A DNA stretch of 64,000 nucleotides from Persicimonas caeni. Its GTDB lineage: Bacteria; Myxococcota_A; Bradymonadia; Bradymonadales; Bradymonadaceae. Location of the stretch: NCBI RefSeq assembly GCF_006517175.1, contig NZ_CP041186.1, forward strand, positions 2,879,001 through 2,943,000, written 5' to 3'. Shown one piece after another: positions 19,041 through 25,399 of this stretch; position 1 is the first letter of the stretch, and every line of letters starts with the position of its first letter. The notes beneath the pieces were generated by a model. The model was not told the origin of the DNA. It saw only the letters and a program-made list of their open reading frames with translations, and did not search any database. A program made the translations under genes and the position numbers.

Positions 19041-19153
19041 AGTCGTGATCGTGATCGTGATCGTGATCGGTTGTTGTCATTCGAGGGGGTGAAACAGCCG
19101 ATCACGATCACGACGACGATCACGATCACGACGACGATCACGATCACGGGATC
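19041..19153. repeat. GATC hexamer array in inverted orientation
   Basis: Eleven GATC sites occur in 107 bp, at 19047, 19053, 19059, 19065, 19100, 19106, 19118, 19124, 19136, 19142 and 19150. The left block is (CGTGAT)n and the right block (GATCAC)n, so the blocks are inverted repeats that can fold into a hairpin around a 31-bp centre. The right block runs into the 3-prime end of the ammonia-lyase gene (stop 19144-19146). It lies between two minus-strand genes. Confidence 0.9.
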
Positions 19154-20712
19154 GTGGGCGTTGTTTTGAGTGCCTTTGCGAGGGACTGGATCTCGGCCGA
19201 CAGTGACCGGTCTTCATCTACGAAGGCGCTGCGCGCCCTCACCCAATGAGCTATATTTTGTGAGCTCTCGCAGAAGTCGTCCCTCTCGAACCCTCCCACC
19301 AATTCGAAGCCCTGCACGAGCACCATCGCCTCGATGGCGAGTACTTCGTAGAGCCGTTCGAGCAGCTGCGAGGCGCGCAGCGCGGAAATGGTGCCCATGG
19401 TGACGACGTCTTGGTTGTTGGCGTTGGTGGGCACCGACTGGATGGAGGCGGGCGACGACTTGGTGCGCATCTCGGCGATGAGGGCGCTGGCGGTGACCTG
19501 CGCGCCCATAAAGCCGCTGTTCAGCCCGGTGTGGTTGCCCTGCATGAAGGCGGGCAGGCCGCCGTTGAGCGTGGGGTCGGTGACGCGGGCGACGGCGCGC
19601 TCGGCGTGCACGGCGAGCTTGATGATGGCGTTGGACAGCGCGTCGGAGGCAAACGAGATGTGCTGGCCGTAGAAGTTGCCGCCGTGGACGACGCGGCCGT
19701 TTTCGACGTCGAAGACGGGGTTGTCGGTCACCGAGTCGAGCTCGCGGGCGACGGTCTGGCCGTGGAAGTCGAGGGTGTCGAGTACGGCGCCGAAGAGCTG
19801 CGGGATACAGCGCAGCGTGTAGGCGTCCTGGGGCAGATCGCGGCCGTGGTCGACGGGGCCGTCGCCAGCCAGATCGAGGCGCGCGGGCTCGTCGGGGATG
19901 GGCTGGAGGCGCGCGCTCGACGCGGAGAGCGCCATCAAGCGCTCGTGGACGCTCCCCTGGCCGGGGTGCGGGCGCAGCCTGCCGAGCAGCGGGTCCCACG
20001 CCTCGCGCCGGCCTTCGAGCAGCTCGGCGTAGAGGACGGCCAGGCGCAGGGCGAGGTCGAAGGCCCTGTCGGTGTCGGTTTGATTGACCAGCGCGAGGCC
20101 GGTCATCGCCGAGGTGCCGTTGACGAGTCCCAGCCCTTCTTTATGGGCGATGTCGAGCGGCTCGAGGCCGACCTCGTCGAAGACCTCGGCCGCCGGACGG
20201 CGTTGGCCGTCGTACATGACGTCGGCCTCGCCCAAGAGCGCCAGGGCCATGTGGGCCAGCGGAGTCAGGTCGCCGCTGGCGCCGACGGTGCCGAGCGAGG
20301 GGATCACCGGCAAAATGTCGTGCTCGAGGCAGTCGAGGATGAGCTCGACGGCCCGCGGCCGCACCGCCGAGGCGCCGCGCGACAGGCTCACCGCCCGAGC
20401 GAACATCAGAGCGCGCACGTAGACCGGGGCGAAGGGCTCTCCGACGCCGGTGGCCAGGTGGTAGATCAGCTTGCGCTGCAGCTCGGCGGACTGGGCGGGG
20501 TCGATATATTGGGTCGCCAGCGGCCCGTAGCCGGTGGTCACGCCGTAGACGCGGCGTTTTTCGGCGACCATGCGGTCGAGCAGCTCGCGCGAGGCGAGCA
20601 TGCGTTCGCGTGCGGCGGGGCTCAGCTCGACGCGGCGGCGGCCGCGAACGACGTCGATGGCTTGTTGGACGGTGACGGAGTGATGCGGGTCGAGTGCGAG
20701 CGCTCGGCTCAT
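19144..20712 (-). CDS. Aromatic amino acid ammonia-lyase, predicted tyrosine ammonia-lyase
   Basis: MIO-dependent lyase that removes ammonia from an aromatic amino acid; tyrosine would give p-coumarate. 522 residues, the usual HAL/TAL length. The MIO-forming Ala-Ser-Gly is at 145-147 in GTVGASGDLTPLAHMA, and the catalytic Tyr56 is in VYGVTTGYGP. The selectivity position is His85-Leu86 (KLIYHLATG), which aligns with H89-L90 of Rhodobacter sphaeroides TAL (NLVHHLASG). Histidase has SH and PAL has FL there. The ATG overlaps the stop of the CoA-ligase gene (ATGA), so both act together. With the PYP-like gene next door, a chromophore pathway is the best reading. Phenylalanine or histidine activity cannot be excluded. 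Confidence 0.85.
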   Translation of the reverse strand: MSRALALDPHHSVTVQQAIDVVRGRRRVELSPAARERMLASRELLDRMVAEKRRVYGVTTGYGPLATQYIDPAQSAELQRKLIYHLATGVGEPFAPVYVRALMFARAVSLSRGASAVRPRAVELILDCLEHDILPVIPSLGTVGASGDLTPLAHMALALLGEADVMYDGQRRPAAEVFDEVGLEPLDIAHKEGLGLVNGTSAMTGLALVNQTDTDRAFDLALRLAVLYAELLEGRREAWDPLLGRLRPHPGQGSVHERLMALSASSARLQPIPDEPARLDLAGDGPVDHGRDLPQDAYTLRCIPQLFGAVLDTLDFHGQTVARELDSVTDNPVFDVENGRVVHGGNFYGQHISFASDALSNAIIKLAVHAERAVARVTDPTLNGGLPAFMQGNHTGLNSGFMGAQVTASALIAEMRTKSSPASIQSVPTNANNQDVVTMGTISALRASQLLERLYEVLAIEAMVLVQGFELVGGFERDDFCESSQNIAHWVRARSAFVDEDRSLSAEIQSLAKALKTTPTIP

Positions 20713-22259
20713 ACAGCTTCCTCGAAGGTGCCGATATCGGGCAACGAGCGCAGCTCGTCGCGAAGAACTTTGCCGGCGCCGTTTCGGGGCAATTCGTCGA
20801 CCACGAAGAGACGCCGGGGACATTTGTACCGCGCCAGAGACTGGGAACAAAACGCCACGATGGCCTCCAGCGAGATTTCGTCGCCCGCATCGTCTTCTTC
20901 GGGGACCACGGCGCAGCAGACCTGCTCGCCCCAGAAGTCGTCGTCGACGCCGAAGACGGCCGCTTCGGCGACGCCCGGCATCTGCCCGAGGACGCGCTCG
21001 ACCTCGGCCGGGTACACGTTTTCGCCGCCGGTGATGATCATGTCGCGGCGCCGGCCGACGATCGTGTAGCGGCCGTCTGCGTCCTGCCGGGCGATGTCGC
21101 CGCTGTGGAACCACCCGCAGCGAAGAGCGCGGGCGGTCGCCTGCGGGTTTCGCCAGTAGCCCTTCATGACGTTCGGGCCGCGCAGGATGAGCTCGCCGGC
21201 CTCGCCGGGCGCGACGTCGCGCCCCTCGTCGTCGACGATGCGCACGTCGACGAACTCGCCGGGAACGCCCACCGAACCGGCGTGCTCGACGGCGTCGCGT
21301 GGGCCGAGCAACGTGGCCATCGGCCCCGCTTCGGTCATGCCGTAGCCCTGCATGAGCGTCACGTCGTGCTCGGCCCACGCCCGGATAAGTTCGGGCGGGC
21401 ACGGCGCACCGCCGACGACGCCGCCTTTGAATTTCCCCATGGATTGGGCCAAGCCACTGTCAGCCTCCGCCTTGGAAAGACTGTCGAGCAAAGCCCGCCA
21501 CATCGTGGGGACCATGAACGCGCAGGTCGCGCCGGAGTCTCGGATGTGGGCGAGCGCCAGGTCGGGCTGGAAGCTCGGCACTAAAATGCTCGTGCCCCCG
21601 GCGAGCAGCAGCGGCCAGGTGAGCACGTTCAGCCCGGCGACGTGGAACATCGGGGCGGCTGCGTAGTTGATGTCGTCGGCTCCGAAGGGCAACTCCTGCA
21701 GGAATTGGGCGTGATTCCACAGCAGGTTGGCGTGGGTGTGCACGGCGCCGCGCGGGGTGCCTGTGCTTCCGCTGGTGTAGACGATGAGCGCCGGAGTCTC
21801 GGGGCCCGCCGGGGCATCCGTGGGCGACGCCAATGTATCGGCCACCATGTGGGTGACGGAATCGTCGAGTGGGACGTCGGCGTCGATCAGCATCACGGCG
21901 CTCGACAGCGCCGCCTCGAAGGCGAGCGTGGCGGTGCGCATCTCGTAGAACATCACGGCCGGGTCGGCATCCTCGATGACCGCGGCCAGCTCGACGGGGG
22001 CCAGCCGGTGGTTGAGCGGGACGAAGACCGCGCCGCGTAGCGCGCACGCGGCCTGCAGGGTGACCAGCGCGATGCGGTTGGGCATGAGCGCTGCGACGCG
22101 GTCGCCCGCGCCGATGTCGAGCCCGGCGAGTTGGGCGGCGCGTGTCTTCGTCATTCGCCACAGCTCGGCGTAGGTGACCTGACGCTCCGGCTCGATGAGC
22201 GCGATCTTGTCGGGGCGTGTGTGGGCGTGGTGTTTGAGCCAGTCGCTGCTGAGGAGCAT
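20709..22259 (-). CDS. Acyl/aryl-CoA ligase, predicted p-coumarate:CoA ligase
   Basis: ANL-superfamily enzyme that adenylates a carboxylate and transfers it to CoA. The 516 residues carry the full motif set: YTSGSTGTPRG (phosphate loop), GYGMTEAG, GWFHSGDIA, the hinge region GRRRDMIITGG and the catalytic lysine in LPRNGAGK. Sequence alone gives a broad ligase class. The 4-bp overlap with a predicted tyrosine ammonia-lyase gene points to p-coumarate as substrate, giving p-coumaroyl-CoA. The upstream leader is C-rich (CCCCAAACCCC) with no clear ribosome site. Divergent from the PYP-cyclase gene, with which it shares a 189-bp promoter region. Confidence 0.85.
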   Translation of the reverse strand: MLLSSDWLKHHAHTRPDKIALIEPERQVTYAELWRMTKTRAAQLAGLDIGAGDRVAALMPNRIALVTLQAACALRGAVFVPLNHRLAPVELAAVIEDADPAVMFYEMRTATLAFEAALSSAVMLIDADVPLDDSVTHMVADTLASPTDAPAGPETPALIVYTSGSTGTPRGAVHTHANLLWNHAQFLQELPFGADDINYAAAPMFHVAGLNVLTWPLLLAGGTSILVPSFQPDLALAHIRDSGATCAFMVPTMWRALLDSLSKAEADSGLAQSMGKFKGGVVGGAPCPPELIRAWAEHDVTLMQGYGMTEAGPMATLLGPRDAVEHAGSVGVPGEFVDVRIVDDEGRDVAPGEAGELILRGPNVMKGYWRNPQATARALRCGWFHSGDIARQDADGRYTIVGRRRDMIITGGENVYPAEVERVLGQMPGVAEAAVFGVDDDFWGEQVCCAVVPEEDDAGDEISLEAIVAFCSQSLARYKCPRRLFVVDELPRNGAGKVLRDELRSLPDIGTFEEAV

Positions 22260-22448: not shown

Positions 22449-23486
22449 ATGACGCATTACAAAAAGCCCGACCTCGAGCCTGCCATCCTGGAGGCTTGCC
22501 TCGACCAGCTTCCCATCGGCGCGATCCTCGTCGACGACGAGGGTGTCATCAAGCGGTTCAATCGCTACGAGGAGCAGCTTTCGGGGCGGTCGCGCGAGAA
22601 GGTCATCGGGCGCTCGTTCTTCTCCGATGTGGCGCCGTGCACCAACGATATCGAGCTGGGCGCCCGCTTTCGGGAGGGGATCGAAGACGGAAACCTCGAC
22701 ATCGATATCGAGTTCAGCTTTCCGTACCCGTACAACCGCGTGGCCCGCGACGTGCGCATCCGGGCGACCTCGGTGCACGGCCAAGAGGACCATATCAACC
22801 TGGTCCTCATCGAGGAGATCACCAGCCGGCGCGAGCTCGAGCGTAACAACCAGACGATGATGGCGAGCCTGCGGGCAATGATCGGCGCCGACGCGGTCGG
22901 GGACGCCGACGAGCGGAAACCGGCCGCCACGGTGACCCGCCAGAAGGCAGTGTGCCTGCTGGCAGACTTGTCGAGCTATGCGTCCGTGGCTCGCGAGGTG
23001 GCGCCCGACGAGCTGTTCGGCCTGCTCGATGGGCGCATTCGTCGCGCCGTGGCCGCCATCCACCGCTACGGCGGACATATCGACGAGATCACCGGCGAGG
23101 CGGTGCGGGCCTACTTCGTCATCGAGGAGCGTGAGGAGGTGCACAACCAAGCCTTCTTCAACGCCCTTCGGGCCGCGCGCGACATCACCGGAGAGCGAGG
23201 CGACGCCGAGTTCGAGCTGCCCTTCCGGGTGGGCATCGCCAGCGGCGAAGTCATCCAGGGGCAGCTGGGACGCGACGAGTTCTCCCAAAAGGCGACGGTG
23301 GGGGCGGCCTTTACCGCCGCCAGTCGCCTCGCCTCATTGGCCGGCGAGGCGCAGACGATGATGGCCGCCGACGTCGAGGAGCGCGTGCGTGAGTCGGTGG
23401 GCACCAGCGAGGTGCCGCGCATGCCCATTGTGGGCCTCGATGAAGTCTGGCCGGTCTATCGCCTCGAGCGAGTCGACCTTCCCTGA
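22449..23486 (+). CDS. Photoactive yellow protein domain fused to class III nucleotide-cyclase domain
   Basis: 345 residues, probably cytosolic. Residues 10-124 align with Halorhodospira halophila PYP at a constant offset of 5 through at least residue 93, with no gap. C64 equals C69 (p-coumaroyl thioester site, DVAPCT), E41 equals E46, R47 equals R52, S45 equals T50 and F37 replaces Y42; the following FREGIEDGNL also matches. A helical linker (125-160) leads to a class III cyclase fold (165-330). There Asp173 is kept, but the other metal Asp is Glu217, the substrate Lys is Glu213, the adenine Asp is Ala286 and the Asn is Thr289, while Arg293 is kept. Output activity is thus uncertain. Divergent lyase/ligase genes could supply the chromophore. 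Confidence 0.88.
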   Translation: MTHYKKPDLEPAILEACLDQLPIGAILVDDEGVIKRFNRYEEQLSGRSREKVIGRSFFSDVAPCTNDIELGARFREGIEDGNLDIDIEFSFPYPYNRVARDVRIRATSVHGQEDHINLVLIEEITSRRELERNNQTMMASLRAMIGADAVGDADERKPAATVTRQKAVCLLADLSSYASVAREVAPDELFGLLDGRIRRAVAAIHRYGGHIDEITGEAVRAYFVIEEREEVHNQAFFNALRAARDITGERGDAEFELPFRVGIASGEVIQGQLGRDEFSQKATVGAAFTAASRLASLAGEAQTMMAADVEERVRESVGTSEVPRMPIVGLDEVWPVYRLERVDLP

Positions 23487-23554: not shown

Positions 23555-25399
23555 GTGAGCACGCAAACGCGAACAACGACGACCATCGAACCGGGCGCGA
23601 CGTTGATGGGGCGCTACGTCATCGAGGGCTGTCTGGGGAGCGGAGGCATGGGCAAGGTGTACCTGGCCCGCCAGCACCCGTTCGACCGCAAAGTCGTCAT
23701 CAAGGTCATGCACGATCGGCACGTGGCCAACGACCAGTTGCGCCAGCGCTTTTTCAACGAGGCGCAGGCGGCAAGCCAGCTGTCGCACCCCAACACGATC
23801 ACGGTCTACGACTTCGGTGAGGCCGACGACGGCATGCACTTCATCGTCATGGAGTACGTCGACGGGCGCTCGCTGCTCGAAGAGCTCAACGACAACGGGC
23901 CGATGTCGGTGGCGCGTGCGGTCCCGCTGGTCGTGCAGGTCGCCCAGAGCTTGGGCGAGGCGCACCGAAAGGGGATCATCCACCGCGACCTGAAGCTCGA
24001 GAATATCATGATCTCGGCGGTCGGCTCGGGCGACGAGTTCGCCAAGGTGCTCGACTTCGGGATCGCCAAGCTCACCGAGAAGAAGGTGGGGCTGACCCAG
24101 ACGGGCTCGGTGTTCGGCACGCCGGGGTATATGCCGCCCGAGCAGGCCAACGGAAACGACAAGATCGACGCCACCGCCGATCTGTACGCGCTGACTTGCT
24201 GCCTGTACGAGTTGCTCACAGGCCGGCTGCCGTTCGAGGGGGAGTCGGCGTTGGCGGTCCTGATGAAGCATCAGACCGACCCGCCTCCCAGTCTGCCCGA
24301 CCATCTGCCGCGGCGCCTCGACGCGTTCATCAAGCGCGGCATGGCCAAGCAGCCGCGCCATCGGCCCCAGAGCGCCGACGAGTATATCGCCGGGCTGCTC
24401 GCCTGTTTCGTCGACCGCGACAAAGCCGCCGGTCGGCGCAGGCCGCGCGAATCGTCGTCGTCGCACCCGAACATCGCGAGTGCGCAGACCAATGAAGGTA
24501 CGCCACCGGGACCGAAGACCACCCGCCGAAAGGCGTCGGATGTGCACTCGCGGCCGACGATGCAGTCGCCGGTGCCCCAGCAGAAGCTCGATCGCGCCGC
24601 GATGGACGACCTGGGTCGAGCCAAGACGGCCTCGGGCGAGCACGACAGTATGTCGCCCAGGTTGCCGACGCCCCAGCCGAGTCCGAGTACCCCGGTGCCG
24701 CGTCTCGAGAAGAGGGAGCTGACAGGTGAGCCGACGCACGAGACGGGCCGAGACGTGTCCGAATCGCGCCCGGGCACTGGCGCTCGACCTGGCGAGCCGA
24801 CCGACACGCGCGTCCCTCTAAGCTGGGTGGTCGCCGGCGGGTCGGTGCTCGTCGCTACCGGCGCTCTTCTCTTTGCCTTCAACAGCGCCCCCGAGCCCGC
24901 CCGCCCCTCCGCCAGCGCGGCAGCGACGAAGACGCCCGCCAAAGTCGAGCTGACCGTGGTGAGCGAGCCCGAGCGCGCCAGCATCTTCGCCGACGGCCAG
25001 CGCGTGGGGATCACCCCGGCAACGCTGAGCTTCGACGACGGCGAGACTGTCGACCTGCGCATCGAAAAGAGAGGGTTCCGCCCCGAGACGTTCGATGACT
25101 ACAGAGTCGGCACCGCCGCCGACGGAAAGCTCGTGGTGCCGCTGGAGGCGGCCACGATCACCGTCACGGTGACCTCCCCGGATGCCGACGGCGAAGTGCT
25201 CGTCAACGGTGAATCGTTCGGAAGTCTGTTGGCGGGAGCGAGCCGTCGACTCGAGGTGAGCTGGCCGAAAGACGCGTTGGAGGTGCGCATTCGCTACGCC
25301 GACCGCGCTGACTACGTCGAGCGCATCCCCGCAGGGGCGATCTCGACCGACGTCGAAATCGCCCCTGCGGCCGATGAAGCGCTGGGGGCGAAGAAGTAG
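23555..25399 (+). CDS. Hanks-type Ser/Thr protein kinase with TM segment and PEGA domain
   Basis: 614 residues from the GTG at 23555, which has AAGG seven bases upstream; a TTG two codons earlier is the alternative. Kinase residues: GSGGMGKVY at 28-36, Lys50, HRDLKLEN at 143-150, DFG at 167-169 and GTPGYMPPEQ. A long Pro/Ser-rich linker (about 285-415) leads to one membrane helix (about 427-447), then a PEGA domain (about 465-530) outside the membrane. This is a normal bacterial receptor-kinase plan. The gene starts 68 bp after the PYP-cyclase gene on the same strand, so co-transcription is likely and it may be the output kinase. Its stop is four bases from that of the ferredoxin gene. Confidence 0.9.
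   Translation: MSTQTRTTTTIEPGATLMGRYVIEGCLGSGGMGKVYLARQHPFDRKVVIKVMHDRHVANDQLRQRFFNEAQAASQLSHPNTITVYDFGEADDGMHFIVMEYVDGRSLLEELNDNGPMSVARAVPLVVQVAQSLGEAHRKGIIHRDLKLENIMISAVGSGDEFAKVLDFGIAKLTEKKVGLTQTGSVFGTPGYMPPEQANGNDKIDATADLYALTCCLYELLTGRLPFEGESALAVLMKHQTDPPPSLPDHLPRRLDAFIKRGMAKQPRHRPQSADEYIAGLLACFVDRDKAAGRRRPRESSSSHPNIASAQTNEGTPPGPKTTRRKASDVHSRPTMQSPVPQQKLDRAAMDDLGRAKTASGEHDSMSPRLPTPQPSPSTPVPRLEKRELTGEPTHETGRDVSESRPGTGARPGEPTDTRVPLSWVVAGGSVLVATGALLFAFNSAPEPARPSASAAATKTPAKVELTVVSEPERASIFADGQRVGITPATLSFDDGETVDLRIEKRGFRPETFDDYRVGTAADGKLVVPLEAATITVTVTSPDADGEVLVNGESFGSLLAGASRRLEVSWPKDALEVRIRYADRADYVERIPAGAISTDVEIAPAADEALGAKK

What the first reader, a model, noticed from the sequence alone, without database searches (positions are those of the whole stretch)
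22965..23330. Cyclase domain with altered catalytic residues: pseudo-cyclase or new specificity
Asp173 and Arg293 fit the class III pattern. The usual Lys of DKFxGD is Glu213, the second metal Asp is Glu217, the adenine-specifying Asp is Ala286 and the transition-state Asn is Thr289. Four of six canonical positions differ. The output may be an inactive binding scaffold, heterodimer partner, or cyclase with different base choice, perhaps acting on the kinase gene 68 bp downstream.
Basis: partly seen in the sequence, partly recalled or inferred. Interest (0 to 1): 0.7.

Follow-up and report, generated by a model that had tools for sequence, protein, structure and literature searches.

The report
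Blue-light sensor with dead cyclase output
A predatory bacterium carries a blue-light sensor fused to a cyclase-fold domain that has lost most of the residues needed to make cyclic nucleotides, and whose gene is always followed by the gene for the same kind of protein kinase, which suggests that light is passed on by protein contact to a kinase instead of by a second messenger.

Summary
Window 22449-23486 encodes a 345-aa protein: a photoactive-yellow-protein (PYP) domain (residues 15-125), a helical linker, and a class III cyclase-fold domain (161-345). All 28 canonical cyclases compared keep D/K/D/N/R at five of these; the sixth (286) varies even among them. Two orthologs read DKDHTK and DEQQLA: none keeps the transition-state Asn, and only the first Asp is common to all three. 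The fold's conserved glycines are all kept, and AlphaFold plus structure search confirm the fold (Z about 23). This is a conserved pseudo-cyclase, not a cyclase with a new base choice. In all three genomes the next gene is a membrane Ser/Thr kinase of one orthologous clade, out of 37-86 kinases per genome. The same genomes carry another degenerate cyclase domain fused directly to a Ser/Thr kinase. Best reading: a light-switched, non-catalytic regulator of its dedicated kinase. Catalytic death, binding and light control are inferred, not shown. A 2025 survey of 984 PYPs reports, in its main text, neither a class III cyclase fusion nor a kinase operon of this type.

The parts
22449..23486 (+). 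PYP-pseudocyclase gene (345 aa, P0001)
   Evidence: orthologs in two other genomes at 59% and 52% identity
22491..22823 (+). PYP-type PAS photosensor domain, residues 15-125
   Evidence: TIGR02373 E 9e-27; PDB 1mzu E 3.7e-21
22638..22640 (+). Cys64, equivalent of PYP Cys69 (p-coumaric acid thioester)
   Evidence: ungapped alignment to Hhal PYP, offset 5; invariant in three orthologs
22827..22883 (+). linker helix, residues 127-145
   Evidence: AlphaFold secondary structure (low pLDDT there); ITSRR motif conserved
22929..23483 (+). class III cyclase-fold domain, residues 161-345, degenerate active site
   Evidence: Pfam Guanylate_cyc E 7.5e-4, below cut-off; PDB 1yk9 E 2e-7; model Z 23.5 to 3r5g
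22965..22967 (+). D173, first metal Asp, kept in all three orthologs
23085..23087 (+). E213 in place of the substrate Lys (K in G015, E in G016)
23097..23099 (+). E217 in place of the second metal Asp (D in G015, Q in G016)
23304..23306 (+). A286 in place of the base-reading Asp (H in G015, Q in G016)
23313..23315 (+). T289 in place of the transition-state Asn (T in G015, L in G016)
23325..23327 (+). R293, transition-state Arg (K in G015, A in G016)
23555..25399 (+). Ser/Thr kinase with one hydrophobic segment and C-terminal PEGA domain; VVIK, HRDLK and DFG motifs intact; alternative start 23549
   Evidence: Pfam Pkinase 8e-48, PEGA 5e-6; motifs and hydropathy; reciprocal best hit of the neighbour kinase in G015, best hit in G016
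20709..22259 (-). AMP-forming acyl-CoA ligase, probable p-coumaroyl-CoA ligase
   Evidence: position next to PYP and ammonia-lyase
19144..20709 (-). aromatic ammonia-lyase, probable tyrosine ammonia-lyase (YHLATGVG loop, GASGDL motif)
   Evidence: below the histidine ammonia-lyase equivalog cut-off, 456 of 539 bits

Best explanation
The gene encodes a blue-light receptor whose output domain is a pseudo-cyclase. p-Coumaric acid, made by the adjacent ammonia-lyase and activated by the adjacent CoA ligase, is attached to Cys64 of the PYP domain. Light changes the PYP domain and, through the helical linker, alters the dimer or surface of the cyclase-fold domain. That domain no longer makes cyclic nucleotides but binds the dedicated membrane Ser/Thr kinase encoded 68 bp downstream and switches it. 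Shown here: domain make-up, loss of catalytic residues in three orthologs with the fold kept, and strict linkage to one kinase clade. Inferred: chromophore attachment, catalytic death, binding to the kinase, and light control of it.
For: PYP half: TIGR02373 9e-27 and PDB PYP matches; Cys69, Glu46 and pocket residues kept, Tyr42 is Phe (8.9% of natural PYPs); ammonia-lyase gene beside it in all three genomes and CoA ligase in two. Dead site: window DEEATR, G015 DKDHTK, G016 DEQQLA against DKD.NR in 28 of 28 canonical relatives; eight fold positions (G209, D212, G216, A239, G262, G266, G274, G285) kept 24 of 24 times, five catalytic positions 6 of 15 times. Fold: pLDDT about 90 over most of 161-320, Z 23.5 to CyaB. 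Purifying selection on the domain, pN/pS 0.53-0.72. Kinase link: the next gene in all three genomes is the best-matching kinase, 353-356 bits reciprocally between window and G015 against 216-224 for the next best among 37-86 kinases, and the three form one supported clade (97/95); within the family this kinase type (E up to 1e-69) is seen only in the three genomes with the sensor. Fusion precedent in the same genomes: kinase plus degenerate cyclase (ERNSER) plus AAA plus TPR, 1510 aa.
Against: No binding or kinase assay exists. Only three orthologs are known, so co-variation between sensor and kinase cannot be tested. Glu at the second metal position may still bind metal, and G015 keeps D, K and D. 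The PYP half was poorly modelled, so it rests on sequence. Conserved adjacency can reflect shared expression without physical contact. The cyclase half evolves faster than the PYP half (37-52% against 69-77% identity), which would also fit a domain losing its function.
Confidence: 0.58

Rival explanations
1. Half-site subunit: the protein acts like the C1 half of a mammalian adenylyl cyclase, giving the metal-binding residues to a heterodimer with another cyclase that supplies the base-reading and transition-state residues, so light controls cyclic nucleotide synthesis.
For: The first metal Asp is kept in all three, and the second is D in G015 and E here; what is lost most consistently is the C2-type set (base Asp, Asn, Arg). 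C1 gives the metal Asps and C2 the rest in mammalian enzymes (PMC4174876).
Against: G016 has Gln at the second metal position. No C2-like cyclase (metals lost, K/D/N/R kept) was found in any of the three genomes; the only other cyclases are complete FHA-GAF or HAMP enzymes and the kinase-fused degenerate one. Nothing of the kind lies next to the gene.
Confidence: 0.14
2. The domain keeps a nucleotide-binding site without turnover and acts as a light-gated ATP or GTP sensor that then regulates the kinase or another partner.
For: D173 is invariant; E213 matches the Glu of guanylyl cyclases, and a Rv1625c chain with Glu at this position (1yk9) is the closest PDB sequence match.
Against: Position 213 is Lys in G015, so base preference is not conserved; the ribose and phosphate contacts (N289, R293) are lost or variable.
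Confidence: 0.13
3. A cyclase of altered specificity (for example cUMP, cCMP or cGMP) that still turns over.
For: K to E is the classic first step from adenylyl to guanylyl cyclase (established knowledge of the family).
Against: The Asn is missing in all three orthologs and the Arg in two, and these serve catalysis whatever the base; the set drifts between orthologs instead of settling on a new motif.
Confidence: 0.06
4. A decaying output domain: the PYP is still used, but the cyclase half is a relic without function.
For: The cyclase half diverges faster than the PYP half, pN/pS up to 0.72.
Against: Open frame of full length in three genera, all eight near-invariant fold positions kept, pN/pS below 1, conserved link to one kinase clade.
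Confidence: 0.09

Closest known systems
PYP-histidine kinase and PYP-phytochrome-histidine kinase or GGDEF receptors (Ppr, Ppd)
   Same: N-terminal PYP as light input, helical linker, C-terminal signalling domain; PYP-HisKA-HATPase proteins of other Myxococcota hold PYP domains among the closest
   Different: Output is a degenerate class III cyclase domain, and the kinase is a separate Ser/Thr kinase; no such combination in the main text of the 2025 survey of 984 PYPs
Photoactivated adenylyl cyclases (OaPAC, bPAC)
   Same: Blue-light sensor N-terminal to a class III cyclase fold; model aligns to OaPAC at Z about 21
   Different: Those use BLUF and flavin, and OaPAC keeps DKD.NR; this uses PYP and has lost the active site
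STK-cyclase-AAA-TPR fusions related to TIGR03903 (TOMM system kinase/cyclase fusion)
   Same: Pairs a Ser/Thr kinase with a class III cyclase-like domain; in these genomes that domain is degenerate too
   Different: One polypeptide, no light sensor, AAA and TPR regions; the own-genome copy scores 266 bits against a cut-off of 705.75
C1/C2 halves of mammalian adenylyl cyclase
   Same: Loss of part of the catalytic set in a chain that keeps the fold
   Different: There the two halves are complementary; no complementary partner found here

Membership tests
Photoactive yellow protein family | Cys69 for the chromophore and Glu46 | tested here: met
   C64 and E41 by ungapped alignment, offset 5; invariant in three orthologs
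Photoactive yellow protein family | Tyr42 or, in a minority of members, Phe42 | tested here: met
   Phe37; the family has Tyr in 90.8% and Phe in 8.9% of members
Photoactive yellow protein family | NCBIfam TIGR02373 equivalog cut-off (single-domain PYP model) | tested here: not met
   93.6 bits against 143.05; only 1 of 377 Myxococcota genomes has a match above it, so the cut-off fits the narrow H. halophila type, and the claim made here is 'PYP-like domain'
Photoactive yellow protein family | Binds p-coumaric acid and photocycles | not testable with these tools
   ammonia-lyase and CoA-ligase genes adjacent
Class III nucleotidyl cyclase (active enzyme) | Class III fold | tested here: met
   Foldseek E 8.5e-14 and Z 23.5 to CyaB 3r5g
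Class III nucleotidyl cyclase (active enzyme) | Two metal-binding Asp | tested here: not met
   D173 and E217; D/D and D/Q in orthologs
Class III nucleotidyl cyclase (active enzyme) | Transition-state Asn and Arg | tested here: not met
   T289 and R293; T/K and L/A in orthologs
Class III nucleotidyl cyclase (active enzyme) | Base-reading pair Lys/Asp or Glu/Cys | tested here: not met
   E213/A286; K/H and E/Q in orthologs
Class III nucleotidyl cyclase (active enzyme) | Makes a cyclic nucleotide | not testable with these tools
   no assay
TIGR03903 TOMM kinase/cyclase fusion | Kinase and cyclase on one chain | tested here: not met
   two genes here; a related fusion exists elsewhere in the genome, below the cut-off
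Photoactivated adenylyl cyclase (PAC) | BLUF or LOV sensor joined to an intact cyclase | tested here: not met
   sensor is PYP-like, cyclase site degenerate

The most novel reading that the evidence does not exclude
A light-switched pseudo-cyclase: a class III cyclase domain, stripped of catalysis, is the output of a PYP photoreceptor and controls a Ser/Thr kinase by protein contact, giving PYP a eukaryotic-type phosphorylation pathway that has not been described.
Probability: 0.5. Interest if true: 0.75.

Novelty: new variant of a known kind. Interest (0 to 1): 0.6.

Why it matters
How PYP passes its signal on is named as an important gap in that field (PMC12826048). This locus gives a small, testable system with sensor, kinase and chromophore genes together. 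If the kinase is light-switched, it would show a cyclase fold reused as a protein switch and give a compact blue-light tool for Ser/Thr phosphorylation.

Tried and rejected
New base choice: rejected because Asn and (in orthologs) Arg are lost as well and the set is not fixed between orthologs. Dedicated partner cyclase: PF00211 searched in the three genomes at E up to 1; none with a C2-like pattern. Kinase-cyclase linkage in other bradymonads: 15 loci with the nearest kinases were read; only G025 contig 125 has a cyclase near, a membrane type with HAMP-like layout and a gap of about 770 bp, taken as unrelated. Other PYP-cyclase fusions: none among about 60 PYP domains found in 377 Myxococcota genomes. 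Genome-collection scan with the single protein found nothing; with the alignment it found only the G015 genome again, as JAQCND010000571.1. Frameshift or wrong start as a cause of the odd residues: rejected, the frame is open and conserved. The PYP half of the AlphaFold model was of low confidence and was not used.

Full report
What is there. The reading frame 22449-23486 (+) gives 345 residues. Residues 15-108 match photoactive yellow protein (TIGR02373 E 9e-27; Ppr PYP 1mzu E 3.7e-21). By the ungapped match to Halorhodospira PYP, Cys69 is Cys64, Glu46 is Glu41, Tyr42 is Phe37 and Thr50 is Ser45. The survey of 984 PYPs lists Phe42 in 8.9% and Ser50 in two blue-shifted PYPs at 432-434 nm (PMC12826048), so a working sensor absorbing a little to the blue is expected (inference). 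Residues 161-345 match class III cyclases weakly by Pfam (E 7.5e-4, below the cut-off) but clearly by pairwise search (1yk9 E 2e-7) and by structure: an AlphaFold model with pLDDT about 90 over most of 161-320 aligns to CyaB 3r5g with Z 23.5, 2.0 A over 182 residues. The PYP half of that model is poor because the alignment held only two PYP rows.

The active site. The comparison set is 28 intact cyclases from related genomes, all D/K/D/N/R at 173/213/217/289/293; position 286 varies among them. Two orthologs exist in the same family, G015 (59%, also JAQCND010000571.1, Bradymonadaceae MAG) and G016 (52%). Their patterns are DKDHTK and DEQQLA. So D173 is the only one of the six kept in all three. 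By contrast eight non-catalytic positions that are at least 96% conserved in the intact set (G209, D212, G216, A239, G262, G266, G274, G285) are kept in every ortholog; two others (N194, T282) changed in the same way in all three. pN/pS is 0.53-0.72 for this half and 0.25-0.28 for the PYP half (synonymous sites near saturation, so these are rough). The fold is held and the chemistry is not: the mark of a pseudo-enzyme. Loss of the transition-state residues speaks against a mere change of base.

The surroundings. Directly upstream on the other strand lie an AMP-forming CoA ligase (20709-22259) and an aromatic ammonia-lyase (19144-20709) with the YHLATGVG loop, also present in G015 and G007 and as YHLASGVG in G016; by established PYP biology such enzymes make and activate p-coumaric acid. 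In G015 the order is sensor, kinase, CoA ligase, ammonia-lyase on one strand; in G016 the ammonia-lyase, sensor and kinase lie in a row and no ligase was recognised in the 20 kb read. The chromophore genes move about; the sensor-kinase pair does not.

The kinase. All three neighbours have a kinase domain with HRD and DFG motifs, a single strong hydrophobic segment and a PEGA domain. G000 has 86 kinase matches, G015 37 and G016 57 at E up to 1e-30. The window kinase finds its G015 neighbour at 356 bits (next 224) and its G016 neighbour at 314.5 (next 222); the G015 neighbour finds the window kinase at 353 bits (next 216). A tree of 39 kinase domains puts the three together (97/95), with window and G015 as sisters (99/95), the order also suggested by the cyclase halves. 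In the 21 genomes of the family, matches at E up to 1e-69 occur only in the three with the sensor (the threshold is close to the best paralog, 1.9e-66, so this is supportive, not absolute).

Precedent in the same genomes. A 1510-aa protein (L099:2966-7495, minus strand) joins a kinase, a degenerate cyclase domain (ERNSER), an AAA domain and TPRs; its counterparts in G015 and G016 are still more degenerate (RHSERQ, RSARAS, weaker alignments). Kinases and dead cyclase domains therefore travel together in this lineage, here as two genes.

How it may work. Shown: domain make-up, catalytic loss, fold, linkage. From established PYP knowledge: chromophore attachment and light response, given Cys69, Glu46 and the biosynthetic genes. 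Inferred: the pseudo-cyclase passes the light state to the kinase by contact, for instance by changing kinase dimerisation. The half-site heterodimer remains possible at about 0.14; its weak points are Gln in G016 and the lack of a complementary partner.

Known or new. The PYP surveys of 2022 and 2025 list histidine kinase, GGDEF/EAL, phytochrome, V4R, MCP and REC fusions, and no class III cyclase fusion or Ser/Thr kinase operon in the main text (supplementary files could not be read). Among about 60 PYP domains in 377 Myxococcota genomes only these three carry the cyclase fold. I rate it a new variant of a known kind.

Organism. The genome is one contig of 8,047,206 bp; Persicimonas caeni YN101, a pink predatory bacterium from a solar saltern, is reported at 8,047,306 bp (PMC7188933), so the window is very probably from that species (inference).

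Noticed in passing
G000:C1:6806733-6807056 (L037:2281-3069 +): Second PYP in the same genome: an N-terminal coiled coil plus PYP, just downstream of roadblock/LC7-like genes. A coiled coil-PYP protein also occurs in G007 (L038, with its own ammonia-lyase and CoA ligase) and probably G051 (L040), hinting at a PYP linked to small-GTPase regulators of the MglB kind.
   Followed up: partly
L099:2966-7495 - (G000:C1 about 8015965-8020494): 1510-aa Ser/Thr kinase fused to a degenerate cyclase domain, AAA_16 and TPRs; related to TIGR03903 but well below its cut-off; homologs in G015 and G016 have even more degraded cyclase domains.
   Followed up: partly
L101:1703-5165 - (G000:C1 about 1338700-1342165): An intact FHA-GAF-cyclase lies beside a Ser/Thr kinase whose kinase domain groups with that of the kinase/pseudo-cyclase fusion (100/100).
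   Followed up: no
L063, L066, L067, L076, L077; L068, L073, L082, L088: PYP-V4R proteins recur in other Myxococcota (Pfam-confirmed for L063 and L066, similar sequence in the others); L068, L073, L082 and L088 have PYP followed by a region of about 200 residues, and the one scanned (L073) had no Pfam match there.
   Followed up: no
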